Positions 2,456-64,000 of a DNA stretch of 64,000 nucleotides are shown here, one piece after another (positions within the stretch are counted from its first letter, which is position 1; each line of letters opens with the position of its first letter). The translations under genes and the position numbers were made by a program. A model generated the notes under the pieces. The model was not told the DNA's origin and did not search any database. It saw only the letters and a list, made by a program, of their open reading frames with translations. Source of the DNA: Chytriomyces cf. hyalinus JEL632 (taxonomy: Eukaryota > Chytridiomycota > Chytridiomycetes > Chytridiales > Chytriomycetaceae); assembly GCA_025435555.1 (NCBI GenBank), contig JAIWWG010000048.1:205680-269679 (forward strand). The letters are read 5' to 3'.

Positions 2456-3394
2456 TCAAAGATAATACTCGCAAAACAAGTTTCGATCAACGCAGTGAGA
2501 ACAACTTGGTTTTCCCTTGTCACATTTGATTTTCCGTAAATGACAAGATTTGCAAGAGACTGCGCGGACGGCGGCTCTGGGTTTTCTTGTTCCGGAGAAG
2601 GAGGATACTGATTTTTCAATGCGAGAAAGGATGGTGGATGATGATGTGAATGGTTGTTGTTGTAGTGTAGTTGATGGAGTTGTTGCATTCAATGAGGCTG
2701 TTGTTATTCTTGTTGTTGGTTCGGCGGATGGAGCTGTAGCTGAGAATGAAATGGCCGTTTGATACGGCACAAGAGTTGATGGGCTTGACTTGAGCGGAAA
2801 TGGATGTGGGATTGGATGAAGCTGCTCCAAGTCATGTTCACCGTGGACAATGTTTCCGATGGACATTGGGTTCCACGACGGCCTTGGCAGTTGCTGCGAT
2901 GGTGGTGCGGCGGAGTTTAAAGTTGTCCGCCTTGAGGTGTTGAATGCGAGCGATGGAGTGGAACCAGGGGGTAGGTATATACATTCAATGCCTCTGTCTG
3001 AGCAGCGCTGGCATGGGGTTCCGAGGGTGCACTTTCGGCGCCATTCTCGACATCCTTCGCATGGGACGGGACGGCCGTAAGGCTTCATGGATTGACTGTG
3101 CTTGTAGTTGTAGTTGTTTTTGTTGGTGGTGGTGGTTGTGGATGACTGGTTCGAGCGGAATGAACAGTTGTTGTTGTTGTGGGCTGGAGTCGGTGGTGGT
3201 GGTGGTGGTGGTGGTCTTTGTGGTGGTAGCTGATGCAGTTGATGTTTGGGTATGCAGTTGTTGGTAGCAGTTGGCGAATCCAAGGTTGCATTGTTGTTGT
3301 CCCTCTGGGAAGATGCTGTTGCTGTCGTGGAGTTTCCCGCCTGGTCCTCGCGACCCGCCGAATCAACACTTCTTTCAAGGTGGAGGAGGGACAT
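2456..3394 (-). CDS. Double Zn(II)2Cys6 transcription factor, copy 1
   Basis: An intronless 312-residue protein. The N-terminal 110 residues are low complexity (Thr, Asn, a Pro8 run). Two complete fungal Zn2Cys6 clusters follow: one at about 112-138, with spacing C-x2-C-x6-C-x5-C-x2-C-x6-C (begins CEGCREWRRKC), and a second at about 281-308, four residues from the C-terminus (CKSCHLRKIKCDKGKPSC). Fungal zinc-cluster factors normally carry one cluster near the N-terminus followed by an activation domain. Here the second cluster ends the protein and no fungal-specific TF middle-homology region is visible. Likely a nuclear DNA-binding protein; two clusters could bind paired CGG half-sites within one chain (inference). 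Tandem paralogue at 3885-4913; a third relative lies at 14258. Confidence 0.85.
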   Translation of the reverse strand: MSLLHLERSVDSAGREDQAGNSTTATASSQRDNNNATLDSPTATNNCIPKHQLHQLPPQRPPPPPPPPTPAHNNNNCSFRSNQSSTTTTTNKNNYNYKHSQSMKPYGRPVPCEGCREWRRKCTLGTPCQRCSDRGIECIYLPPGSTPSLAFNTSRRTTLNSAAPPSQQLPRPSWNPMSIGNIVHGEHDLEQLHPIPHPFPLKSSPSTLVPYQTAISFSATAPSAEPTTRITTASLNATTPSTTLQQQPFTSSSTILSRIEKSVSSFSGTRKPRAAVRAVSCKSCHLRKIKCDKGKPSCSHCVDRNLFCEYYL

Positions 3395-3499
3395 TTTTTA
3401 TGTGTTAAAAAATGGGGCGCCTTTCTTGATTGAATTAATTTTTATTCAAAAAATTGGGAATTACAAGCTTTTCTTTTTTCATGAACGGGTCATACATAA

Positions 3500-3884: not shown

Positions 3885-4913
3885 TTAATTTAAATAAACA
3901 CATTCAAGACCACGGTTCGCGCAGTCCGAACAAGCAGGTTTGGACATGTCGCATTTTGTTTTCCTTCGGTGACAAAAAGTACACGCTTTCCCTCGCTTCG
4001 ACAATGCCTGTTGTTGCTGCTGTTGTTGGTGTTGTTGGTGTTGCTTCCGATTTGCTGTCGACTCTGTATGGTCCAAGTGGCGGCGTTGTGTTATTGTTGC
4101 GAGTCCACCGATACCGTGATTTGATGACGCATTTTGTTGGGATGTCGTTCCGACAACCGGGTGGTTTGCATCTTCCGAGGGTTCAATAATGTTTGAAATG
4201 GCCATAACAGAGTCTGGCTTCCTTAAAGGCAAGCTGGTAGTAGTAGCAGCGACTAAACCAGATTGAGATGACAGTTGTGGTGGTGGTGGTGGCGGTGACT
4301 CTGACTCGTTTGCAGCAAAAGTGGTGCTCGTGGACGATGACGGAGACAACCGCAGTCTCGCATTTTTGCGCTCATATCTCAAAGGATTATACATGCACAC
4401 AGCACCTCGCTCGATACACCGGTTGCAGCTGGGTTTCGTGAGGTCGCATTTCCGCCGCCATTCTCGGCATCCTTCGCATGGAAGTGGTCGTCTATACATG
4501 AGTCTGCTGGCGTCGTGAATGCTTGTGCTTAATGAGTTGACGACGACTTTGCGTGACGTGTGTATGCTGGTAGCTTCTGCTGCTGCTGCTGCTGCTGCCA
4601 GGACAGTCGATGGAGGCATGGAGGACGATGAGCTTGCGAAGCTCGGTTTCACGTCCTGATTCTCGCTGTCACTGTTGTGACGGGAGTGCGAGTAGTTGGA
4701 GTGGGTATTGTGGGAGAGCATGTGTTGTTGTTGTTGTTGTGGTGGTTGCGGTGGTGGTGGTGGTGGTGGTGGTTGCGCCAGTGCAGCTGCTGTTGTCGTT
4801 GTTGTAGTACTGGTATTCGATTTCGAGCAGTCTTTTGCGTCCTCGTTGTTGGAGTCCAGGTTGGTTGTTTCAAACAAGGGTGGGCTTATACGGGGCTTGC
4901 GATCATCATCCAT
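3885..4913 (-). CDS. Double Zn(II)2Cys6 transcription factor, copy 2
   Basis: An intronless 342-residue protein, tandem paralogue of the gene at 2456. The first 140 residues are low complexity (poly-Thr, Pro-rich, Gln-rich, an Ala run). Zinc cluster 1 is at about 146-172 (CEGCREWRRKCDLTKPSC). Cluster 2 is at about 311-338 (CTFCHRRKTKCDMSKPAC) and again nearly ends the chain. The identical CEGCREWRRKC start of cluster 1 in both copies, and the C-terminal position of cluster 2, show common descent by tandem duplication. Expected to be a nuclear DNA-binding regulator. It lacks a recognisable ligand-sensing region, so the signal it responds to cannot be inferred. Confidence 0.85.
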   Translation of the reverse strand: MDDDRKPRISPPLFETTNLDSNNEDAKDCSKSNTSTTTTTTAAALAQPPPPPPPPQPPQQQQQHMLSHNTHSNYSHSRHNSDSENQDVKPSFASSSSSMPPSTVLAAAAAAAEATSIHTSRKVVVNSLSTSIHDASRLMYRRPLPCEGCREWRRKCDLTKPSCNRCIERGAVCMYNPLRYERKNARLRLSPSSSTSTTFAANESESPPPPPPQLSSQSGLVAATTTSLPLRKPDSVMAISNIIEPSEDANHPVVGTTSQQNASSNHGIGGLATITQRRHLDHTESTANRKQHQQHQQQQQQQALSKRGKACTFCHRRKTKCDMSKPACSDCANRGLECVYLN

Positions 4914-7514
4914 GCCGTGTGTGTGCGGTTGTTTTTCAAGACAGTTTGTTGAATGAACTTTTTTTCATCATCGTAGGCCGTTCATTGAAGTCGGCATTTG
5001 TCGGCAACCGAAGATTTTAATGGTCCCCCAACTTGAAATTAAATATGTCATCTCTCCCATGGACCATTCAAGCAGATGATGTACCGGTTGCGTGTAGTGT
5101 GTATGCATGTGTATATATGTGCATGTATATGTATGAATTGTATCGCAACAAACCAGACGACTTAAACTGAGGCCTGGCTTACAAATGCAACACCAAAAAC
5201 CAAATCGCTTGACACTCATCCTAAAAATAGACTATAAAAATTGTAATTGGCGGGCGCCGAGCAATGACTGGGCCTCAAAAAAATACTAAATATTTTATGA
5301 AACTGATTCCATCATCATCTTTAACGCCAGATTCCCAAATTTATATTTTTTAAAAACTTTAATATTTATGCAAACCGTATTTACTTTTATTTACAAGCAT
5401 TCCATTCATGCGCATCTTTGACATTCTTGTTCTCCATCCGCAACTGTCATCATCCCAACTCGTTAATATTTTACAATAGCGTCATCATTGCTGAATTGGT
5501 TCAAGTTGCAACCCCCCGTCCTCAAACACGAAATCAAACACGAAATCAATTGCGGAGGAGGCTAAAAGAGTAAGAAATGATGTACTACATTTTCCCTTAC
5601 CCCCTTTCCCACCCGCCAGCAAATGCCCCCCCGCCCTCGTTTGCCTCCTTCCCGAACCAGGCGGGTGCGGCGCGTGGCAAAGCAAGTTCACGGTCACTGC
5701 AAAACTGAAAATGGTAAAATCAGTCGATTTTTTCAAATTTAGTAAATTCACATGAAAAATTTATGCGCGTCCGGATTTTTTTTCTTTTTAAGGGTCCTAC
5801 GCGGCCCGTGCGTTTCACGTTCAAAAGGGTTTTTTGGATGTCAAAGGGGCTGGGCGGGCTTTCTCTTTTTGCTGTAAGTTTTTACGAATCGAGACTTGTC
5901 CTTTTGAAAAAAAAAAAAAAAAAAAAAAATGACGTGCCAAAAACATTGAGTGTCAGAACCCTTTCGTTCATGGATGCGGCTAGCTCCATGTGAGATTGAC
6001 CAGCGCCAGTTGTTTTGCTTTGAAAAATCCGCCTCAATTTTTTCGTTTGGACAACTGTTCCGAGCAAAGCGACGGATGACGAGGAGGAGGAGGGTCCTTT
6101 TTTTGCTGTTGAAGATATGTCCATAACCCATCAAGTTGCGTCTTCTGCTTCATCCGGAAACAGTACACATCATCTGCGCTGCTGTCAGCATCAACTGCGC
6201 AGTCAACCTCATCCTCGGCAACCCGCTATCTCAGCAACCCCGAAATTCGCCTCCATAAAAATTCATTCGTAGTCACTCAACCGAATTGCAGGAATCTCGG
6301 CCCTGAAAAACGCGGCGAATGGAGGATGCCGTCCGCTCCGACGCTCCGCCAAAGCCGCCGAAGGCGGCGGAACTCAAAAAAACAAAACAAACAAACAGTG
6401 CGCCTGCTTGTGCATCTGGATAATAAAGTATGTAACACGCCAGAAGCACATGACACGTGCATTCAGACGCAATTTGAGAGCTGTACTCAGAAAGATTCAT
6501 TTTTCTTTGAATTTCCGCCCAATAAGCTGGTTCATCCATGGAGCAGTGTTCAGACGTGTCAGCTGTCGTGCTTGCTTGAATCTCAGTGACGGGTACATTT
6601 CACAAAGACAAGTACAGAATTCGGTGAGTCTTATTGCGATAGAGCCTGACAGCTCTGAAATCACGTCGCGTGGGGACACCGAGTCCTGTTCCTGATGCGC
6701 GAGCGGTTCACACTGAAGCATGCGTACCAACAGCATGGTAGCAGTGGTTTGAGCAGCAGCAGCAACAGGCGTTTGGATGTAGCAAGGGGATGGGAAGGGG
6801 ATCACGTATGCAGATGTGTTGAAGGCTGGGTTGTTGGAGAGTTAATTGCAAAAACGGGTATGCGTGGGGTTGAGTTGCTGCGAGTAGTTGACTCGTGGGC
6901 GCATTTTGGGTTTCTGCAAGATTCGTTTCATTTGATATAGGGAAAGGAACTCCAAATCGTAGTTTGCCAATGTCGATTTTTTTTAGTGTTTTGGGATGGG
7001 ACTCATTTCCGAAATACCATCAAAACAAAAAGTTGCAAATAGCGCGCTGCAATAACTTGCATTGCTTGCGCTTTGTAGACAAGTTTTTGAAGCGCGTGTG
7101 AGTTGGTTGAATTGGGGTTTGCTGCTATTTTTTTCTTTCGAACTTGTTTTTGTACCATACCCCCCCGGACATATTTTTTTCCGTGTTATTCGGGGCCAGT
7201 TTATTTTGTTTTTGCGTCTTTTATAACAAGCCATTGTTGTTTCGCGTTTTCTATTATTATATTATTGCCTGCGCTGATTTTATCAGGTTAGAAATTTAAA
7301 CTCGCAAGTTTGGCAGTGACTCCAACAAAAAAATCATCAACTGGGACGAACCGGACTCGGCGATTCTCAACACCCATCCCATCCATCCATCCATCATTCG
7401 AATCTTGTTTCAGAAAACTCAACTCGTGGCCGACGAATCTTGTTGACCCTTCCTTGCGAAAGACTGTCTCAGAAATCGAAAATCCTTGATCCCCATCGCA
7501 AATTACACACATAC
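4914..7514. other. Gene-poor interval
   Basis: AT-rich sequence with homopolymer runs (an A-run near 5906-5928) and only short ORFs. The exception worth noting is a minus-strand ORF at 6497-6880, listed separately. The final part (7370-7395) has CATC repeats upstream of the carrier gene. No RNA gene is recognised. Confidence 0.5.
6497..6880 (-). CDS. Possible exon(s) of an unrecognised protein
   Basis: The minus strand stays open for over 100 codons from a plausible splice acceptor near 6873 (..CCCAG) down to the stop at 6497. Residue composition looks protein-like, with a mixed amphipathic stretch containing LSGSIAIRLTEFCTCLCEMY and LRFKQARQLTRLNTAPWMNQ. I do not recognise it. No clear initiating exon is found upstream. 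The end of the ORF overlaps another plausible frame (starting MDEPAYWAEIQRK at 6539), so the exon ends are unresolved. It may be a chance ORF. Confidence 0.3.
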
Positions 7515-13843: not shown

Positions 13844-14257
13844 TTCTATAAAATTGTCTTGCCACTTTGCACTCACTCTTCCCTGTTTACAGCGGCATGC
13901 ACACTTGCTCAACAGTGCTTAACACGAAAGGGAAATGATGAAATGGCGTCTCAAGCACGGTCCAGATCAACAGCATCAACTTCTTCCAACAACCACTTTA
14001 AACTTGTTAAGTCACGCCGGACACCGGCGCTCTTGGTGCTGCCAGCACCAGCAACCCCGCGTCGCAGTTACGTAGAGGCCCAGCAAGAGCACCGTTAGAG
14101 CGAGGTCCAAGTAACGGTAAATAAATAAAGGAAAAAAGAAAAAAGAAAACAAAGTGAAAAAAAGAGAAAAAAACAAATCTGAAAAGTTTTGTTTCAGAAT
14201 TTGTCGCCGTTTCGCAAGCAACAACGTCCGCAAAAAAGAGCCAACCGCAACACTGGA

Positions 14258-15988
14258 ATGCAAGCAACACATTCGCTGTCCGCCGAGTACGGAAGTAGCT
14301 CAGACCAGGAGCGGGAGGCCGTCGAGGCCATGCTCAACTTCCACCGCAGCTCACAGTCCCCGCCTCATCGCAGCAGTCAAGGGGACCCCAGCCATGCCAA
14401 GGACGACATCCCGAGAGCAGTCCCAACATCAGCGGAGATGTCTCTGGGAGCAGATATGTCGGCTGAGCCCGATCGGTTCCTCGACGGAATCGCTTTAGGC
14501 TCGCTCAAGCGGCTGCGTCCATGCGACTCGTGCCGGGCCATGAGAAAACGGTGCGACTATGAGTCTGGCGAAAACTGCACTCGCTGCACTGAGCGGGGCG
14601 AAACTTGTGCGTACACTGACGAGATGCGCAAGAAGCCGTGCGTTTCTTTTTCGATGGGTGGCACAGCCGAAATGTCTGGAGTCTACGACATTCCTGCGGC
14701 CGCAGTCCCGGACGTGAGAGCACTTTCAGACTCTCCGTACATGCAGCAAGCCATCCTGGCGTCTCTCGACGAGTCTCCGCGTATTGCAAAGACTCGCAGG
14801 CATGCTGCGTGCACGGCCTGCCACACCAAAAAGATTAAGTGCGACATGCTTAAGCCGTCATGTACGGGATGCTACGAAAGATCCAAAGTCTGTGTCTACC
14901 CGATTCCTCCGCAAAATAGCGAGGCCGAACCTCGGAAAACTCACTTTCCCCTTCCGAAAAGCACTTTTTTCTCGCCCATCATCCCCTCTCAGCCGATACC
15001 ATCCGAAACTGCAACTATTGCCAAACTAGAAGTGCCGGGACAATCTTTAGCCTCGATCAATCCTTCCTCTTCTGTGGCGCTTCGACATCCTTCACTGGGA
15101 CCGGATTCTGGGGACGAATCTATTCATTCAGTAGACAATGGATACTATTCAACCGATTCAGCTGCTTCAAGGTTAAATCAACTTTTGCAAGAGCAATCAC
15201 AAATTGACAATTCTTCAGCAATTTCATCAGCCGCACTCGCCATCGAAAACTTATCGAAACCCCAGCGTACCCCTTTCCCCGCAGTGTCCTCGTCCCCTGT
15301 TGTATTCGATCACCACCTCTCAAATACAAGTGGTGCGCATAGGCCAATATCCGCATCACAAAAGTCCACCAACCAATTCCCACTTTTCAACCCATCCTAC
15401 TTTGAACGCGACCCCAATTTTATTTCCCGCTTCAAATCAAAAAAGCAAATTAAGCAAGCAGCCATTACCGCCGCTGCGCTGGCATCAAATCCAGGCACAC
15501 TGTCTCTTGCAGATATTGTCCTCGACAAACTACCGCGTGTTAAACCGGGCATTCAAAAACGAATCAAGTGCGGAAAATTATGGATCTTGGACCCGGAGAC
15601 GGCAGAAAAGGTGTATTTTTGCCCAATTTGTCGCAAAGATTATACAACAGCAAATGGATTGAAGGTGACTTTTCCAAGATTTTATTTCTGAATCCTTACC
15701 AGACTGCTGATCAAGTTTTTATTTTGATCTCAGTATCACTTGAGCTTACATACAGATTTTCACAACATGCCACCTGGCTATTACTGGAGTAAAGAATCGG
15801 CCACCGAAGATTTGACCAAAGTGTTTCAATGCACCGTAGAGCCATGTCGAAAAGCATACAGCACCCTCGCAGGGCTCAAGTATCACATGGGAAAAGGAAA
15901 ACATGGATCTGCTGAGGGTAAGCAAAGTGGGGATGAGGCGGGAGCAAGTAGTTCGGAAGATGATGAGGACTTGAATCCGGATGAATGA
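14258..15988 (+). CDS. Double Zn2Cys6 factor with C-terminal Sfp1-like split C2H2 fingers
   Basis: Two exons (14258-15664, 15734-15988), 553 residues. Zinc cluster 1 is at about 89-117 (CDSCRAMRKRC) and cluster 2 at about 185-212 (CTACHTKKIKCDMLKPSC). A long Ser/Pro-rich region follows. The C-terminus has two C2H2 fingers created by splicing: CPICRKDYTTANGLK joined to YHLSLHTDFH, and CTVEPCRKAYSTLAGLKYHM...H. The repeated GLKYH motif and the Cys-x4-Cys second finger are typical of Sfp1/JAZF1-type proteins. An acidic tail follows. An upstream exon from ATG 13943 (donor near 14072, acceptor 14196) would splice in phase and add about 60 residues; I cannot decide between the starts. Presumed nuclear DNA-binding regulator. 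Confidence 0.85.
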
Positions 15989-16511: not shown

Positions 16512-19373
16512 TCACTCCTTTTTCAAAAGCGTGTCAACCTCCTTCACCATCTTCTCCCCTTGACTCCCGTCCTTTACACGAATCAAATACTTGCTCAACG
16601 CACCACCATCACCGACACCCATAAATCCAACAGCTTTTCCCCCAGAATTCGGCTCCACCTTCATATTCATGCCCTCAAAGATTTGCAAATTCAGCAAAAC
16701 ACGTCCACTTCCATCCGCCCGCAAAATAAGACGCGTCTTGCCCGTGTCCGGATGAGTGTTGAGTTTCAATAAACCCAACCCCACGTCGTCCCATTTTCCT
16801 TTGCGCAAGACGTACGCCTTACAGCGCACTTCATGCACAGTGCGTTCTTGTTCTTCGCCAGCACCGCGCATAAGTTTGGCAGAGTCAATTTGCTCGTCTT
16901 TGGGTGCGTCTTCATCGTCATCTTCGTTCGTGTTTTGGCTGTCGGTACCTTGTGACGCAGGAGCATTCAGCGCCCCGAACCCTCCGAAAGAACTAGTTGT
17001 CGTCGGTTGAGGCACGCTTCCAAATCCACCAAACTTGGCGGGTGCGTCAGATGAAACTGAACTGAACGAGAAACCAGAGTTGGCAGACGCAAAGGAAAAT
17101 TTGGATGGTGCAGGTGCTGACGATTCGGAAAGCCCTGAGTCCGTTTTGGTTGGAAGAGCTGCTGGTGCCGCACCAAATGAAAATTTTCCCGGTGCGTTGG
17201 TGTCCGATGAACCAAATGCTGGCGCCGCGGTAAACGAAAACGTTTTTGGCTCACCAGATGGATCAGCTGTTGCCGCAGATTTGGCAAACGAGAAACCGCC
17301 ACTACCAGCGTTTGAAAATCCCGTAGGTGCAGGGGACGCTGCTGCCCCAAAAAGACTGGCAGGAGCTGCTGACGATTTCGTCCCAGGTTTATCAGCCTCG
17401 CAGGCAGCGCATTTAAGTTTCTCGTTGGGGTTTGTAATCATGCACACATCGCAGATCCATTGCTGTTTGGGAGCAGCACTCAATGGTGCACTGGTGGACA
17501 CCTTTGGTTTTGGCTTATCAGCCTCGCAGGCGGCACATTTAAGTTTCTCGTCGGGGTTTGTGATCATACAGACATCGCACGTCCATTGCGGGCCAGATAC
17601 GGCAGGCTTTCGTGCTCTTGGCTTGGGTTTATCCGCCTCGCATGCAGCGCATTTCAACTTTTCGTCTGGATTCGTGATCATACACACGTCGCATGTCCAT
17701 TTAGGCCCGTTGGAAACTGCTGCCAATTCAGGTTTGGGTGCTTCGGCTGCCTTTGGAGCAAACGAAAATCCTCCTGGCTGTGGTGTATTCGACGCGGCTC
17801 CAAATGAAAATCCGCCACCTGAGAGAAGGGAAAGATTACGTGAGACTTGCTCATGATCATACAAGAAAAATGCACAAACTTGCAGCTGGCGCGGCTTTTG
17901 AATTAAACGAGAAACCAGAGGATGCAGCAGAGGCGTCTGTGGCAGGATTTTCGGACATGGTAAAAGTTGGAACTGCTTTTTTCGATGTGGCGCCTGCAAA
18001 CGAAAAGCCGACACCCTTGACAGTGGGTCTGGGAGTTGCTGCTTCACCAAAGCTGAACCCGCTGCCACCACCACCACCACCAAATGAGAACGCTGATGCT
18101 GGAGCATTTGCCGGTGCTGGTGCTGTTCCAGCCGAGCTCGAATTGAAACTGAATCCACCCGCTGGCGACGGGGATGAGGCAGGTTCTTTCAAAGCTGAAA
18201 AGGAAAATCCTCCAGCCGCAGGCGTGACAGGCTTCGATCCGGGCTTATCAGCTTCGCATGCCGCGCATTTTGCGCTTTCAGCGTCATTTTGAATGAGGCA
18301 GGTCCCGCAGGTCCATTTCGATGCCTGACTGACACTTGACGCAAACGGCGATGCTTTTGCGGGGGTAGACGGTGCATCAGCAGAAGCAGCCTTGAAACTA
18401 AATCCACCAGCTGGAGATGCGGCATCATTAGAAGCGGATTTGAAGCTAAATCCACCGGCTGGCGAGGCTGAGGGAGAAGCATCCTTCAACGCGGAGAAAG
18501 AGAATCCTCCAGGTGCCGAAGGGGTAGTTTTAGCACCTGGCTTATCCGCTTCACATGCTGCACACTTGAATTTATCGGCGTCATTCTGAATCAAGCATGT
18601 TTCACAGGTCCACTTCGAAGCAGTTGAAACAGATGCACTTTTAGCCGGAACTGAAGAAGCGGCAGACGTTTGAACGTTTCCTTTGTTCCCTTCTTTTAAA
18701 GCCCGCACTGCGTCCTTTGATGTCTCCATGATACGCGCGTGGTGCTCGCGGTATCTTTCGAGACAACCGGACAAATCCGCAAAAGGGTCACTGGCCAGAC
18801 GTTCATTGACATGCGCTTTAAAGCTTTCGTTCAATCCGCGAAGAGATGTAGCAAAAGACAAGACTTCTTTTGACGGAGTTGGAGCAGGTGCTGCAGAGAA
18901 AAAACCCGGTTTCGGAGTGTTTTCAGGCTCTTGTTGGACGGGTTTTTGGACGGGTAATGGTGAAAACGAAAAATTCGAAAAGGGCGCGTTTGAAGGAGCC
19001 ACGGCTGGAGTGGAAGAGACCGGGCCAAACGAGGACGACGCGGATGGCTTGGGCGTGAACGAGAAGTTGGAAAAGGCGCCGCCTTGCATGGGCAGGGACG
19101 GGGCGCCGGCGGGGAGAGTTCTCCCCTGAGGGTAAAGCAAAATAGAAAGATATGGTTACTGTTTATTCAACGGCATGAGAAGGATGCATTGGGAGTGTGT
19201 TGTTGGGAAGTGGGCGAGGCACAAACCCGCTTCAGCGGAGCAATGATTCTCCTTTGCAGCGTTTCCTCGTCCGCTCTGCTGAATTCGCCACTTGGTTCAA
19301 CGGTGTTGTCATCCTCACCACCGCGCGAATCGTCCTTCGTGAGTTGCGATGTTGCTCGTCTCTTGCTCGACAT
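16512..19373 (-). CDS. NUP50: FG nucleoporin with five RanBP2-type zinc fingers and RanBD (Nup50/Nup153-like)
   Basis: Three exons: 19227-19373, 17880-19125, 16512-17818 (899 residues). The N-terminus MSSKRRATSQLTKDD resembles the Nup50/Nup2 importin-binding start. A conserved Nup50 helix follows (LNESFKAHVNERL ... DPFADLSGCLERYREHH). The middle holds many GGFSF/FSF FG repeats and five RanBP2-type zinc fingers of form W-x-C-x2-C-x3-N-x6-C-x2-C, in two groups (2 + 3). The C-terminus from about 790 is a Ran-binding domain (RCKAYVLRKGKWDDVGLGLL ... RLILRADGSGRVLLN). Nup50/Nup2 normally lack zinc fingers, and Nup153 has fingers but no RanBD. It should act at the nuclear basket in Ran-dependent transport. 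Confidence 0.9.
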
Positions 19374-40240: not shown

Positions 40241-41602
40241 ATGCCACCACAAAGCCAAACCCTTCCACCACACCCGCTGATTTCTTTCGCAGGTACATGA
40301 AATGCAGAAGACGACTCATAACAAAAGTTCTGAGCGTTGCTGATTCCAGGTTGCTTTCAAGAACAAGCAGCAGGGACACCATTTCCATACAGCAAACCAT
40401 ACTCAGACGCAGCAGACTGCGCCAACTTTTGCTTACAACCGGAGCCGGATGCTCCAAACTTTATGATCCTGCACCACGCGCTGGCCCCGCAATGTGCTTG
40501 TTCTTCACACTGCTCGCTTGCTCAGATCGGATATGCACTGCACCGCGTGCCTGACAAGCTTTGCTCAAACGCGTGCCCAGACAACAGCAGCATTTTTTGT
40601 GGTGGATCCGATCTAGAAGCCGCGTATTTCAGCGTGTACTCTCTCAAACCCGGCTCTGACAGCTGCTCAGAGAGTGCGATGATCATTCCTTTGAACCGAC
40701 TTGTCCTCATCATCTCATTTATTGCTATTGGATTCACTGTCTGCATCGCTTGCGTGCTGCTTTACTTTATCATCTCGGAGGCCAACGAAACACCGCCATT
40801 GGCAGTGATTTTGGGGAGGGAAATCATGATCTCACCCTTCAATCTCCAGCTTTCACTGATGGCCATGTCGTTGCTTGGATTCTACATGTGCATTATTTAT
40901 GAATCCTGGCTGTTTGTTGCTTCAACAGCCTACTTCGTGCCATTGAACTTTTTCTTCTCAGCCACGTTCAAAACAGTGTACTTGTTCCATAGCTGGATGC
41001 GCGCCTCCAAAGTCATCAAATCTGTCTCAATATTGACTTCTGGATGCATCCGCATCTGCCTGTACACAGTGCCCATTGTTACGTATGCCACCATAATTCC
41101 TACAATCGCTTTCCTCGTTACGTTAAGGAATCCAGGCGACGGATTCACAGCCCTCGCTCGCACATCCAAACAATGGATGCGTTTCATTGAAACAGCATCC
41201 ATAATCTTCGTGGCATCTGTAGACTTGACCTTACTCATCTGCTTTGTCCTGCACATTCTCAAAAACACGCGTGAATCAAAACACGCACCGATTGAACAAA
41301 AGTTTATGATGATTTCGTATTTCGGGGTGATTGCAAACGCGCTTTGTTTTACTGCGCTTGTGGTGCAGATTGAGCAGGTGGCGACTGTGGTTGTTGCGAG
41401 TCGGTTTCCTGTGCATCAAGCGATTGTGGATGCTGCTACGCATGCCGTGTTCACGGCAGTGTTGTTGACGCTGGTGTTTATGAAAGTAGCCGTGCGGCAT
41501 CTGGATAGAAGTGAAGTCGCAACGAGAAGAGTGACGCTGCAACGCAATGTGCTCAAACATGGACTCCAACAAAATAATAATAATAAAGGAGAAACAATAT
41601 AG
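40241..41602 (+). CDS. WSC-ectodomain protein with seven predicted transmembrane helices
   Basis: Main exon 40350-41602, preceded by a tentative first exon 40241-40292 (434 residues). A WSC domain opens the chain: GCFQEQAAG, two Cys in DCANFC, CACSSHCS, LCSNACPDNSSIFCGG and a closing YFSVYSL, with the full set of cysteines. Seven hydrophobic segments follow: LVLIISFIAIGFTVCIACVL, LSLMAMSLLGFYMCII, a Phe-rich third (NFFFSATFKTVYLF), LYTVPIVTYATIIPTIAFLV, SIIFVASVDLTLLICFVL, SYFGVIANALCFTALVV and AVFTAVLLTLVFM. WSC domains bind glycans and in yeast sit on single-pass wall-stress sensors. Joined to seven helices, this resembles a receptor. No convincing signal peptide is found; the 5' end is uncertain. 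Confidence 0.8.
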
Positions 41603-41886
41603 TTTTATGGTTGGACTGAGGTCGCGTTCTGTCGTTTTGATTTTCAATTAAACCATTGGAAACGCCCACCACCCAAGTCATGGCCGTCGAAGTGGTGAAA
41701 CTCATTCCTTTTGTAAGCATTTGTTGAGCATCGGATTTTCAGAAAGGATCGACGGCAGAATGCTTGCCAAACCATCCTTTGAATACCGCCTTCAAAAAAA
41801 TGAACACGCACCTGCAATCGCACCAACTAATTAAATCGGTAGGTGTGCTTAATGAACCTTCTTGGCCACTGACTCTTTGGGTCCAG

Positions 41887-43024
41887 GCTGCATTTACGAA
41901 CAGCAGCAGGTGGGGAACGTGTTCGCCAGTAGCAGGCCTTACTCCAGTGCAATGGAATATCTCCAGTTCTGCTTTTCTCAGCCTGGACCGGATAACGCGT
42001 ACTTCCTGACGTTGCATCACGCGCAGTGCGCTTGCTCATCAAAATGCTCCGTGGCCGAAACTGGAAACCCTCTGCAACGCGTAACCGCTGAGATGTGTTC
42101 GAACAAGTTTCCAGACAACAGCTCTCTCTTGAGCGGTGGTCATCAGGCGGATTCCAACTATTTCACAGTGTATTCAATCGCCGAAGAAGCAAACAGCGCT
42201 GCACTGAAACTGACATCACGACTCCAATGAGCCGGCCCGTACTTTTGATGTCATTTACCATGATTGGAACCAATATCTGCATCCTTTTTGTGGTGCTGTA
42301 CTTCATCGCCACTGAACCAAAGCGAACGAGCGTGACGAGCAAAACCAGATCCACGCTGAGCATTTCGCCTTTCAATCTTCAGCGGTCCCTCATGGCAGAA
42401 TCCTTGATCAGATTCTACGCGTGTCTCTGTTTCGAAACATGGTTTCTGACGGTTCAGTCAGCGCGCTTGGTGCTGCCCGTCTTCTTCTCAGCCAAGTTCA
42501 AAACATTGTATTTGGTGCACAGCTGGCGGCGCGCATCCACTGTCATATTCTCGGTTTCCATTTATGCGGCGCAATGTTTTCGAATCCTGATATGTGTTGC
42601 TCCAGTTGTCATGTACACTGTCATAATTCCTGCAATCAGTTTGGCAGTTTTTCTCAACGCCAGCCAATGCCGATTAACCATGCCATGCAATCCCAAGAGT
42701 GGCTACGAATCCTCGAAACCAATCATTCTTCTGACACTGATTGACCTCTGTCTCCTCACGTGCTTCATCTTCCACATTTTCAAAAATACGCGCGTTTCTA
42801 AAAACGAGCCGATCGAGCGAAAGTTCGTTACGATTTCTTTTTTCGGAAATGCAGCAAATACAATTTGCTGCGGTGCATTTGTGGCGCACATTGTTCAAGC
42901 GGAAATTGTGGGCATTCAGACTCAGTTCTCCACAGATCAAGTAATGCTGGATGCTATAACGCACGTGGTACTGACTGTTGTTTTGGTGGCGTTGGTGGTG
43001 ATGAAGGCCGGAAGACACACGTGA
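41887..43024 (+). pseudogene. Frameshifted tandem copy of the WSC-7TM gene
   Basis: The WSC part (from acceptor at 41886) aligns with the upstream gene: GCIYEQQQ, CACSSKCS, CSNKFPDNSS, YFTVYSI. The membrane part (ITTPMSRPVLLMSFTMIG onward to 43024) aligns in a different frame. The shift lies at about 42198, where two extra bases (GC) interrupt AGC|TGC. Reading on without the shift stops at 42230, giving an ectodomain-only product. Three conserved WSC cysteines are also lost (Cys to Leu, Phe and Ser at the DC, NAC and FCGG positions). Both facts favour a decaying duplicate. A short intron cannot bridge the frames. Confidence 0.75.
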
Positions 43025-58550: not shown

Positions 58551-59123
58551 TGTTAGAGAATAGGTCGAGTGCTGGAACTGGCTTCTTGACTATTCAGAGG
58601 CTGGACTTGGACTGCTTTCGAGCAGGAGAGAGATAGAGAGTAGTAAGTGAGTTATTGAGAGACTAATCTTTATTGGAGGAAAAGGGCAGGCTTCAATTGG
58701 AGTTTCTGGTAACTAATCACAAAGTGAAACAGTTGGAAAATGTTTTGGAGATTTTAGAAGGGAGAGATTTTTGGTGTGTTGGAATTGGTTCAAAATAACG
58801 AGCGGGTTTCTGAAACGTGGGAAATTTTGGTGTTGAGACCTTTTGCTGCGCATTCTTTGAAGTACGTCAACATAATCCAGTAGATTACGTACCAATTGTC
58901 GCTTTATCTATTTAATTCCGTAACGAATATTTGTTACGGAAATAAAGCAATGTTGGTTGATAGATGATCTTTATTGGTAGAAGGACACTGGCTTTTATAC
59001 TGCTGTGGTGAGGGTGATTTGAACTTTGTTGTTTTCGAGAAGTTTCTATCTCCGGAATTTTGAAGGAAAAATTAAAGTCAAGTAAAATGGACACAATGGA
59101 GGAACTGGCGTTATTACGCAACA
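58551..59123 (-). mobile_element. Long terminal repeat of the chromovirus (573 bp)
   Basis: On the minus strand it begins TGTTGCGTAATAACG and ends CTATTCTCTAACA, giving TGTT...AACA termini. A purine tract GGAGGCGGG immediately precedes it, in the place of the polypurine tract. The pol ORF stop codon (TAA at 59114-59116) lies about ten bases inside the LTR. No second LTR copy of this element is seen in the window. Confidence 0.7.
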
Positions 59124-61603
59124 CCCGCCTCCAAGAGCGTACGCGATGAGAAAGGTCGTTGCTTGGGTTCATGTACGTCTTTCTTGAGTCTTTGGCGTAG
59201 CTCTGGAGTGGCATCTAACCAACAGTTGAAAATGGGGCTATGATCCTTCCATTTTATTAGGACCTGAGTTTTTCCTTGAAGTTTCCGCGCCGCGAGCACC
59301 GATTCGATGGTTCGTAAATCTGGCGGGAGCGACTGCAGCGGGTGAGGTTTCGCTGAGTCCCAGTAATACATTTTTAATTTCTCAGGGTGGAAGACCTTGT
59401 GGATATTCCATTCATCAGGAATCTTGAGTCGACACAGCGGAACATCGCCGATCAGCTCTGTGATCTCGTAAGGTCCAGAGTAGCAGTCCGACAATTTCGC
59501 GATCGGTCGGTCTTCAAGAATCTTGGGCCGAAAATCGCGCAACGATAGCAGGACAAGATCTCCGACCTGGAAAGGCGATTCTAGGCGTCGTCGATTGGCA
59601 GCGGATGCGTAACGGTCTTGGGAGTCGCGAATTCTGTCGCATGTGGCTTGGTGAGTGGCTTGTAAATCTCTCAGCGTGAGCGGATCATATGGTGTTAATC
59701 CAACATCAATGAATGATGCAGGGTGTCGCCCGTATTCCAGATAGTATGGAGTGTAGCCAGTGGTGGAGCTCACAGTGTCATTTATACCGAATTCAACCTT
59801 GGGTAAGTGCTCATCCCAGTCGTCTTGCCAGTAATTAACTTCGGAACGTAGGGCAGAGAGTACCCAGTCGTTCTTTTGCTCGGTTTGCCCGTCGGCTTGG
59901 GGATGGTAAGCTGTTGTCATGGCCAATTCTATCTTGAGAGACTGACACAAAGAATTCCAGAAGTTTGACGTGAACTTTGAGTCTCGGTCACTGATGAATC
60001 GTCGAGGGAGTCCGTGGTGTTTGAATACATCGTTGAAAAAGATGTTTGCAATGTCCTTGGCGGTGGAGGTGTCATGGCAGGGAAAAAGTCGGGTGCGTTT
60101 GGTGAAGGAGTCAACAATGACCATGAGTGCAGTGTGTCCAGACTTGGTTTGTGGGAGTTTGGTAATAAAATCCATTGAGATGGTGTGCCAAGGGTGTGGT
60201 GGGATTGCGTGAGGCTGGAGCAATCCATATGGGAGTCGTCGTGCAATCTTGTGCCGTTGGCACGCGTCGCAGGATTGGACAAATTGCTGAATGTCTTTGT
60301 GGATCTTGGGCCAGTGGAAATATCTTGTAAGTCTTTCGGCTGTTCGTTCCCAATTGTTGTGAATAACTGGTCCATACGAATGAGCAGATCGAACCAGCTG
60401 ATTTCGAAGGGGCATTGGGACGAAAACTCTTGCGTGAGTCTTGTCGGTGTAATACAATAGGCCGCTGTGAAGTTTGTATCTGGAAATCGTATTCTTGAGG
60501 GAAGCTGGAACCAATGCAGGGTCATTCTCGAATGTATCAGGATCTTCTGGGTCGATAAGGTACTTTGAGATTTCTTGGTATTGCGGATCATCTGGGTTCA
60601 TGGATTTGATGTCATCCATCAGGTCCTCTGTTATCGAAAGCTCAGTCGCAAATAACTGGTCAGCTTGAGGCTCTTGGATGTTGGAAATTGTCTGATTTAC
60701 GCCAGGTGAGACTTGAATTCCAATTTCTTGAGAGTGCTTTAATCGTGACAGTGCGTCTGCAATCTTGTTCCATTGTCCAGGTTTCCACTGAATCTGGAAG
60801 TCGTAAGCAAGAATGTCGGCAATCCAGCGGTGATGGACTGGGCGAAGTTTTGGCTGGTCAAGGATTCTCCGAAGGGACTGATGGTCCGTGAACACAAAAA
60901 CTCGGGCATCATGAACGTAAGCTCGATGATGTCGTAGTGCTTCGACGAGTGCCAATATTTCTCCTTCATAGGGATGGTATTTCGATTCGGCGTCATTACA
61001 TTTGCGTGAGTGAAAGGCTACCGGCTGATCTATCGAATTCTCGTCTGGCTGGGCTACGTAACTGGAGATGGCTCGCTTAGACCAGTCGGTGTACAAGTGG
61101 ACTGGTTTGTTTGGGTCAAACATGGCAAGTGAGGATGGGTCAGCTAGGGCTTTCTTGGCTTTCTGAAACAGGTCTTGTGCTTCTTTGGTCCAAACTTGAT
61201 GGAAAGGTACGGTTTTGTGTCCTTTAAGGAGGTCTGATAGAGGTGCTAACAGGCTGGCATGATTTCTTACAAAACGGTGGATAGTGTTGGCTAGTCCAAG
61301 GAAACCACGTAGATCAGTAAAGGACTGGGGCTCGTCGTAATTCTGGATGGCCATGTATCGACTTGGTAAGACGCTGATCTTCCCTTGAGAAATCTTGTAA
61401 CCAAGGTACTCCAATGATTCAGTGAAGAATTGACACTTGTGAAGTCGAACATGGAAATTGTTTTCTTGAAGGCGTTGGAGGACTATACTGAGGTGATTCA
61501 TGTGTTCTGCGTAGGTGTCGGAGTAGATTAACAGGTCATCAATGTAGCAGGAAAGGAAACGGTCGACCAGGTTGTTGAATATCAGTCTCAAGTGATGGAG
61601 CAC
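59114..61603 (-). pseudogene. 5'-truncated Ty3/gypsy chromovirus pol (RT C-terminus, RNase H, integrase, chromodomain)
   Basis: An 829-codon open frame that starts within reverse transcriptase, just before the catalytic YIDDLL, so the RT fingers, protease and gag are missing. Next come the RT thumb (FLGLANTIHRFVRNH), RNase H (VHLYTDWS, EGEILALVEAL, TDHQSLRRIL), the integrase zinc motif (H...H...CDACQ), integrase catalytic residues (SMDFI, SDRDSKF, Glu in the third block), GPYEITELIG (GPY/F module) and a chromodomain (LIKWKDHSPIFNCWLD). The frame has no internal stop but lacks an ATG; a stop lies two codons upstream. The element is therefore a remnant, apparently cut by a later insertion near 61604. 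Confidence 0.88.
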
Positions 61604-61898
61604 TGTTTACTTCAATAAAGGTTAAGTCTCCCTGATTCATCTCTTATTCTCTACTGCAGATAAAGAAGAGTCACGCACCTCACCATTCCACCAACCTCAA
61701 TACATATGGGCATGAATTATGACATTGAGTAGGGTAAACGTCTAGTAGATACTATAACAAAGAATGAATACACGAATACACGTGTTCTATGAAGGGTGCG
61801 GACTTGTAGATGATGATAGCTTATTTCACTACATGACTTCAACTATTCTTGCTCTGATCAAGCATAAAGATGGTTGAAAGTAATTGTCTGGAATATAT

Positions 61899-62373: not shown

Positions 62374-62448
62374 AGAGCTGTTTTGTTGTGTTGTGATTCA
62401 CCTTAAGATAATAAATATCATAAAAGCCCAAGTTCAAAACCAAACACA

Positions 62449-64000
62449 ATGTCAGAATCAACCATGGACCAAGCTGCAATGGCAAGTCTCAGTGAGGCTG
62501 TGTCCATCTCTCTCTCTCTCTCTGGCCCTCCCTCTGCAAGTGGTCCTCATGCTACCAGTGGTCTTCCTGTCCCAAGTGAACTCCAAGCTGAGGATCCTGC
62601 TGATGGAGGTCCTCCCAAGAAGAAGCTGGTCCCTACCAAGTCTGCTACCACTCATCACAGTGATGCAGCACTTCCTCCCTCTGCTGGCCCTGCTGGCATG
62701 GATGCTACACAAGTAGCTACCTTCACCATGGTCAAGACTACTAAGGCTGGAGCTGCTGTAATGGCCAAGGCAACTGGACATTCCAGCACCTCTGGAACTA
62801 CCTCTAGTTCTGAACTCACTAAGCTCCCTGCTTATGCTGATGCTGGAGAGTTTACCAGCTGGATGAGACAGTACCTTCTGCTTGCTGAGCAGAAGTTTGG
62901 CTCTGGTGAAGAACTCTACATCCCCAAGGACAAAAGGGGTGCTACTGTACTCTTTCATCCTGTTAACTCCAGACCTGTGGAGCCTGAGACCACTGCTCAA
63001 TTTGATGCAAGACATACTACCATTGCCAAGGCCTTGGAAGACATGTACCAGCAACAACATGATGTGGTCATGAATTTAGCTACTCAGGCTGCAATTTCTA
63101 CTGCTTCCCAAGCTACTGGTACACCTCCTGACCAGACCACAGCTAACAGTAGAGCTAACAATCAAGGTATGAGTAGTACATCTGCCTTTACTACTCCAGC
63201 TAACATATCTCTTACCACAGAGACTATTGATCCAGAGAACATGGAAGTGGACACTCCACCTGTCTTGAATCTGGAAGTTGAAAAGCTAAAGCTGGAGCAA
63301 GCCAGACACAAAGTGGAATCTAACAAGAGGCTCTTTGACAAAGAGGCCAGAACACACTCTCTCATCAGAGCTGGCTATGACAGTCACATGAGAATATTCA
63401 AGAACCTCCACCAGGCCCATGCAAAATGGGTATCATTCCTGAAAGAACACTTGGATGTCATGCACAGCCAGACTACACTCTCTGGAAAGCAGGCCTTGTA
63501 TGAGATGCTGGACTCCCTGTTTGTCCACTGCAACTCCAAAGACTTTGCTTCCATGACATCTGAATGGAACACAAGATGGGCTAATACTGCTCAACAGTGG
63601 CCAGTCAAGCAAGTCCAATGGTCTGATCTCAGGGAGAGATACTTTACCATCCATGGAGGCCACAATGCAGACAGGGACAGAGAGTTGGCTTGTATCTTCA
63701 AGGCCAGACTTATGGAAACCATCCCAAATGGTGACAGGGAATTTGGCCCACTCTTGTTAGCTATCCAAGCTGATAGGACTGCAAACTCCATGAACTCTGC
63801 TGAGGTGCTACAACAGATCAATGAGTGTATGTCTGACAAGGCCCTTTTGAAACCTACTGTCAAGGCCAAGCTTGCAGGTGAAAAGAGACCAAGGGAAAGC
63901 TCTGGAAACAAGCAGTGTTCTGTCCACAAACATAGTACATCTCACACTGATGAGGAATGCTATGAACAGTCTGAAGGCAGAAAAGGCAAAAAGCCCAAAG
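62449..64000 (+). CDS. Copia-like retrotransposon Gag, open at the window edge
   Basis: An uninterrupted frame of 517 codons from ATG 62449 to the last base. The N-terminus is Ser/Pro/Ala-rich (MSESTMDQAAMASLSEAVS). A Gag-like helical core includes FTSWMRQYLLLAEQKFG and WVSFLKEHLDVMHSQ. Near the end a zinc-knuckle-like C-x2-H-x5-H-x4-C motif occurs (CSVHKHSTSHTDEEC), as in many Ty1/copia Gag proteins. Codon use (many GCT, ACT, CCT) and the lack of introns differ from the cellular genes. Protease, integrase and RT should follow outside the window. Assignment to copia rather than another Gag class is tentative. Confidence 0.7.
   Translation, partial: MSESTMDQAAMASLSEAVSISLSLSGPPSASGPHATSGLPVPSELQAEDPADGGPPKKKLVPTKSATTHHSDAALPPSAGPAGMDATQVATFTMVKTTKAGAAVMAKATGHSSTSGTTSSSELTKLPAYADAGEFTSWMRQYLLLAEQKFGSGEELYIPKDKRGATVLFHPVNSRPVEPETTAQFDARHTTIAKALEDMYQQQHDVVMNLATQAAISTASQATGTPPDQTTANSRANNQGMSSTSAFTTPANISLTTETIDPENMEVDTPPVLNLEVEKLKLEQARHKVESNKRLFDKEARTHSLIRAGYDSHMRIFKNLHQAHAKWVSFLKEHLDVMHSQTTLSGKQALYEMLDSLFVHCNSKDFASMTSEWNTRWANTAQQWPVKQVQWSDLRERYFTIHGGHNADRDRELACIFKARLMETIPNGDREFGPLLLAIQADRTANSMNSAEVLQQINECMSDKALLKPTVKAKLAGEKRPRESSGNKQCSVHKHSTSHTDEECYEQSEGRKGKKPK

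What the first reader, a model, noticed from the sequence alone, without database searches (positions are those of the whole stretch)
40241..41602. WSC ectodomain joined to seven membrane helices: a candidate new receptor class
Seen: a full-cysteine WSC domain is followed by seven hydrophobic segments in one continuous exon. Known: fungal WSC proteins (Wsc1-like wall sensors) have one membrane helix, and WSC domains bind glycans. A WSC-7TM fusion would be a glycan-sensing GPCR-like protein. It has also been tandemly duplicated here.
Basis: partly seen in the sequence, partly recalled or inferred. Interest (0 to 1): 0.87.

Follow-up and report, generated by a model that had tools for sequence, protein, structure and literature searches.

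The report
WSC-fronted seven-helix receptor family
A chytrid fungus carries a family of membrane proteins that put a wall- or glycan-recognition (WSC) domain on a seven-helix, GPCR-shaped body, a combination I found no description of, which may let the fungus sense polysaccharides.

The parts
40241..40292 (+). exon 1: MPPQSQTLPPHPLISFA plus the first base of a Gly codon; no evident signal peptide
   Evidence: resembles the start of annotated relative P0001, MRPQNQTLPPHPLISFA; splice check
40293..40349 (+). phase-1 intron, 57 nt, GT..AG
   Evidence: a fitting short intron at the same place in each of the 12 paralogues (start codons picked by eye)
40350..41602 (+). exon 2: WSC domain, seven helices and tail in one frame, with stop codon
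40350..40666 (+). WSC ectodomain, residues 1-106 in the numbering of window:40349-41599; Cys 2,24,28,49,51,72,76,84 plus extra pair 55/106
   Evidence: PF01822; cysteine positions
40670..40789 (+). helix 1 (residues 108-147)
   Evidence: AlphaFold2
40835..40912 (+). helix 2 (163-188), begins with the invariant P-x-N
40919..41026 (+). helix 3 (191-226), carries the invariant W-x-R
41030..41128 (+). helix 4 (228-246 and 249-260)
41144..41272 (+). helix 5 (266-308), invariant Asp292
41297..41398 (+). helix 6 (317-350), invariant Gly326
41408..41581 (+). helix 7 with helical tail (354-411), invariant Lys379
41886..43024 (+). degenerate second WSC-7TM copy (pseudogene): two frames, lost cysteines, gap before helix 5

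Best explanation
It is a plasma-membrane receptor. The N-terminal WSC domain faces outside and recognises a wall or substrate polysaccharide (chitin, glucan) or a wall protein. It sits close on a GPCR-fold seven-helix body: the hydrophobic part of helix 1 begins about 12 residues after the last conserved ectodomain cysteine, without the long linker of Wsc1-type sensors. An extra cysteine pair (55/106) may staple the WSC domain to this stalk, so that ligand binding or pull shifts the helices and activates heterotrimeric G proteins at the conserved cytoplasmic face. Shown by sequence: the fusion, its conservation and selection on both halves. Predicted: seven helices in a GPCR arrangement. Inferred: outside orientation, disulfide pairing, ligand type, G-protein coupling.
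Against: No experiment, no expression data. The WSC match is below Pfam's cut-off in the window protein, and a search of the genome with PF01822 lists only two other loci. Comparison with those two conventional WSC proteins gives 2% probability, E 0.022. AlphaFold2 is unsure of the ectodomain (pLDDT 48.9 alone). No Pfam GPCR family matches and no Foldseek match has E of 0.001 or less. ScWsc1 has no apparent glycan pocket, and WSC domains also bind proteins. Helix 3 falls below the usual hydropathy threshold in 10 of 12 members. The segment after helix 6 (outside in this model) is +0.8, no less positive than that after helix 1 (+0.6, inside); helices 4 and 7 show almost no inner/outer difference. 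A GPCR fold does not prove signalling.
Confidence: 0.55

Rival explanations
1. WSC-fronted adhesion or wall-anchoring protein: the WSC domain tethers the cell to wall or substrate and the seven helices are a GPCR-shaped anchor or mechanosensor that signals without G proteins, as Wsc1 signals through a cytoplasmic tail.
For: Wsc-type proteins apparently sense mechanical force and the Wsc1 fold has no apparent glycan pocket (PMC9024836 passages). The C-terminal tail is short and net positive.
Against: The inner helix halves are the better conserved ones, and 8 residues are invariant across WSC and WSC-less members, which a plain anchor would not need. No long linker like that of Wsc sensors is seen between the domain and helix 1.
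Confidence: 0.22
2. The ectodomain recognises a protein or peptide (mating, self or host factor) and not a glycan; the 7TM part is a G-protein receptor as in Ste2.
For: [quoted passage not shown] The best fold match is the peptide-pheromone receptor Ste2.
Against: Twelve diverged intact paralogues in one genome fit a sensing repertoire better than one mating receptor. No pheromone-like gene was looked for.
Confidence: 0.17
3. Artefact: two neighbouring genes or a chance frame read as one, or a decaying family.
For: Several copies in the genome are broken or partial, including the neighbour in the window.
Against: 12 intact paralogues with a like exon layout, annotated full-length relatives in other assemblies, dN/dS about 0.23-0.24.
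Confidence: 0.03

Closest known systems
Wsc1-type cell-wall sensors (PF01822)
   Same: Same kind of extracellular domain by cysteine order and spacing; two conventional-looking WSC proteins occur in this genome (L001, L002).
   Different: Those two look, by eye, like signal peptide-WSC-linker-one helix; the window family has no evident signal peptide, no long linker, seven helices and an extra cysteine pair.
PTH11-related GPCR-like receptors with CFEM domain (PMC1088943, passages)
   Same: Cysteine-rich ectodomain on seven helices; the ectodomain-bearing members form one clade in a larger 7TM family; lineage-specific expansion.
   Different: Different ectodomain (CFEM); no Pfam family other than WSC was matched by the window protein, so no detected relation of the 7TM part.
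Gut-fungus class C GPCRs with putative sugar-binding ectodomains (PMC5168858, passages)
   Same: Zoosporic fungi; putative carbohydrate-binding ectodomain on a GPCR body.
   Different: Class C 7TM with pectin-lyase-like or SBP type II ectodomains; the 12 members here match neither 7tm_3 nor such domains.
Ste2, class D fungal pheromone receptor (7ad3)
   Different: 6% identity, no STE2 profile match, no WSC domain (recalled).
Polycystin-1 (PMC9672506, listing and passages)
   Same: WSC domain in the ectodomain of a many-helix protein with GPCR properties.
   Different: 11 helices, GAIN/GPS, PKD repeats and channel part; WSC is one of many ectodomains.

Membership tests
WSC domain (PF01822) | profile match over the domain | tested here: inconclusive
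   only Pfam family matched; 6 of 12 ectodomains at E up to 1, best E 8e-5; window 20.4 bits against a cut-off of 27.8
WSC domain (PF01822) | eight cysteines in Wsc order, with CGG motif | tested here: met
   window has all eight and CGG; all eight in 10 of 12 members, L015 and L018 lack the last two; exact CGG in 7 of 12 (counted by eye); reference from PMC9024836 passages
WSC domain (PF01822) | PAN/Apple-type fold | tested here: inconclusive
WSC domain (PF01822) | carbohydrate binding | not testable with these tools
   needs a binding assay
Wsc1-type sensor | signal peptide, long linker, single helix | tested here: not met
   exon 1 products of 12 genes lack a hydrophobic core by hydropathy, no signal-peptide program was run; no long linker; seven helices
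GPCR superfamily (fold) | seven helices in GPCR arrangement | tested here: met
   by prediction:
GPCR superfamily (function) | activation of heterotrimeric G proteins | not testable with these tools
   G-alpha genes are present; coupling not testable
Class D Ste2 (PF02116) | sequence profile match | tested here: not met
   no STE2 match in hmmscan of 12 members at E up to 1; genome search with PF02116 gave 0, but nothing rang in its control, so that search shows nothing
Class C GPCR (PF00003) | 7tm_3 profile match | tested here: not met
   no 7tm_3 match in 12 members at E up to 1, while the genome has 52 of 56 matches over the cut-off
PTH11-related receptors | CFEM domain | tested here: not met
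   no CFEM among the Pfam families matched by the 12 members at E up to 1
Polycystin-1 | 11 helices, GAIN/GPS | tested here: not met
   seven helices; WSC the only Pfam match of the window protein

The most novel reading that the evidence does not exclude
A new fungal GPCR class: chytrids evolved a large receptor family without a Pfam model and with Ste2-like architecture, and one branch captured a WSC domain to make a repertoire of polysaccharide-gated G-protein receptors, stapled by an extra disulfide, that steers zoospores or rhizoids to chitin or glucan.
Probability: 0.35. Interest if true: 0.85.

Novelty: new variant of a known kind. Interest (0 to 1): 0.66.

Why it matters
How chytrids recognise the polymers on which they settle is, to my knowledge, little understood. 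A dozen paralogous receptors joining a wall-recognition domain to a GPCR-like body would make glycan sensing through G proteins directly testable, and would add a case to the repeated grafting of cysteine-rich or sugar-binding ectodomains onto fungal 7TM proteins. The wider 7TM family, with its P-x-N / W-x-R / G / K signature, was matched by no Pfam GPCR model, so surveys by profile would probably miss it.

Tried and rejected
Rejected: a class C GPCR (no 7tm_3 match); a microbial rhodopsin (the invariant Lys379 lies near the inner end of helix 7, not where a retinal lysine is expected; recalled); a chance frame. Weak or negative: PDB sequence searches found no relative. The ectodomain's best PDB sequence hit was a sperm microtubule protein (E 0.0015, 21.9 bits), and no WSC structure was listed there up to E 10; I take the hit for chance, because its two aligned stretches have i-values above 2. 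A conventional WSC protein of this genome also failed to find Wsc1 or Kremen at E up to 1, so that search is blind to such distance. Profile comparison with the two conventional WSC proteins was weak. NCBIfam gave one stray match, far below its cut-off, for the window protein. Hydropathy of single sequences finds 5 (2 of 12) or 6 (10 of 12) segments over 1.6; averaged over the family it finds seven over 1.0, the third at 1.30. Literature: searches (0 papers; 74 papers, 20 listed; 1; 13, 12 listed; 27, 20 listed; 6; 3, 2 listed; 4; 3,555 with two of three terms, 12 listed) showed no WSC-7TM receptor in the listings; most subscription journals are not held. PMC3251606 (passages) was read in passages and has no mention of WSC.

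Full report
Where we are. The window is G000:C186:205680-269679 of a 37.8 Mb genome in 242 contigs. Contig lengths C39 = 71904, C111 = 992932 and C173 = 315737 equal those listed for BJ741DRAFT proteins of Chytriomyces cf. hyalinus JEL632, so I take the genome to be that chytrid (Chytridiales, Chytriomycetaceae). This is inference from lengths, not a label.

The gene. The open frame runs 40334-41602. Annotated relative P0001 of C. hyalinus (91% identical) starts MRPQNQTLPPHPLISFAGCF; the window holds MPPQSQTLPPHPLISFA at 40241-40292, then a 57-nt GT..AG intron and exon 2 from 40350, giving 434 aa. A like layout, a hydrophilic exon 1 of 15-27 residues and a phase-1 intron of 49-65 nt just before the first WSC cysteine, can be read in each of the 12 intact members. 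I picked the start codons by eye; where several donors fit (L007, L011, L016, L018) I took the one that falls in that range, and L018 may instead use a GC donor (by eye). The annotated models P0008 (the protein of L005) and P0013 (of L015) begin with the same exon 1; P0003 (of L004) has further residues upstream of it. No exon 1 has a hydrophobic core like that of a signal peptide (highest 10-residue hydropathy 1.15); no signal-peptide program was run.

The family. Search of the genome with the window protein gave 43 matches at E up to 0.1; 12 are intact over both parts, the rest are broken, partial or lack the WSC part. A WSC-less relative (L028) finds WSC-7TM members by the helices (for example C173, E 7e-17; the window gene, E 4e-12). 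The union of all 43 rows, 47 of 57 rows and all 59 rows is 73 places, or 66 when pieces within 400 nt are joined; places are not gene counts and some rows are weak. In a tree of 21 rows (12 WSC-7TM and 9 of the WSC-less, those intact ones whose loci I had; six of the nine are near-copies in pairs) the WSC-7TM rows form one side of a branch, support 99/99; two WSC-less rows have very long branches. P163, N165, L168, W216, R218, D292, G326 and K379 are the same in 21 of 21. None of the nine WSC-less proteins matches a Pfam family above its cut-off. In the protein database the relatives are all Chytriomyces 'hypothetical proteins'; the method does not see distant relatives.

Selection. Window against L004: dN 0.24, dS 1.01; L011 against L012: dN 0.20, dS 0.87. 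In these two pairs the ratio is 0.14-0.28 for the WSC and helix parts taken apart. In the other seven pairs compared dS is near or beyond saturation.

The second copy. Pieces 41886-42197 and 42146-43018 match in different frames; cysteines 24, 76 and 84 are gone, and there are a 13-residue gap and a 10-residue insert around the loop before helix 5. I read it as a pseudogene. Other tandem copies exist: three intact genes and a broken one on C39, pairs on C173 and C184.

Context. The genome has about 36 G-alpha core places, picked by eye from 96 matching pieces, two of them weak, and 56 class C 7tm_3 matches, 52 over the cut-off, so G-protein signalling looks richly equipped. It also has two conventional WSC proteins that look, by eye, like signal peptide-WSC-linker-one helix.

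How it compares. The layout repeats what is known for PTH11: a cysteine-rich CFEM domain on seven helices, the CFEM-bearing members forming one clade of a larger family (PMC1088943, passages). Gut fungi have class C GPCRs with putative sugar-binding ectodomains (PMC5168858, passages). WSC occurs in polycystin-1 (PMC9672506, passages). A recent survey of fungal GPCRs (PMC12842992; passages and section 3.5) has no occurrence of WSC in its main text and leaves 141,666 seven-helix proteins unassigned. The literature searches showed no WSC-7TM protein in their listings.

Verdict. The finding is real and interesting: an apparently new domain combination on an unnamed GPCR-fold family. Glycan sensing and G-protein coupling are the best reading (0.55) but rest on inference.

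Noticed in passing
whole genome G000: About 36 G-alpha core places (2 weak; picked by eye from 96 pieces), several in tandem clusters (C100, C161, C171, C220): more than the few that I recall for well-known fungi.
   Followed up: partly
whole genome G000: 56 matches to class C GPCR 7tm_3, 52 over the cut-off.
   Followed up: no
P0007, P0010, P0012 against L007: Some database models of the family start at or after the Met before helix 1 and lack the WSC part; for P0012 the 87% identical locus here has an open WSC domain upstream, so annotation may hide the architecture.
   Followed up: partly
59114-61606 (-) and 62407-63999 (+): By eye, a retrotransposon polyprotein (reverse transcriptase/RNase H, integrase, chromodomain-like end) and a gag-like frame near the window end.
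   Followed up: no
2456-3397 (-), 3885-4964 (-), 14183-15691 (+): By eye, three frames that each carry two Zn2Cys6-like cysteine clusters.
   Followed up: no
16512-19155 (-): By eye, RanBP2-type zinc finger repeats with FG-like sequence over two frames, resembling a nucleoporin.
   Followed up: no
L011/L015 on C173 and L012/L018 on C184: Two tandem pairs with matching order (L011 is nearest L012, L015 nearest L018 in the tree), suggesting a duplicated segment.
   Followed up: no
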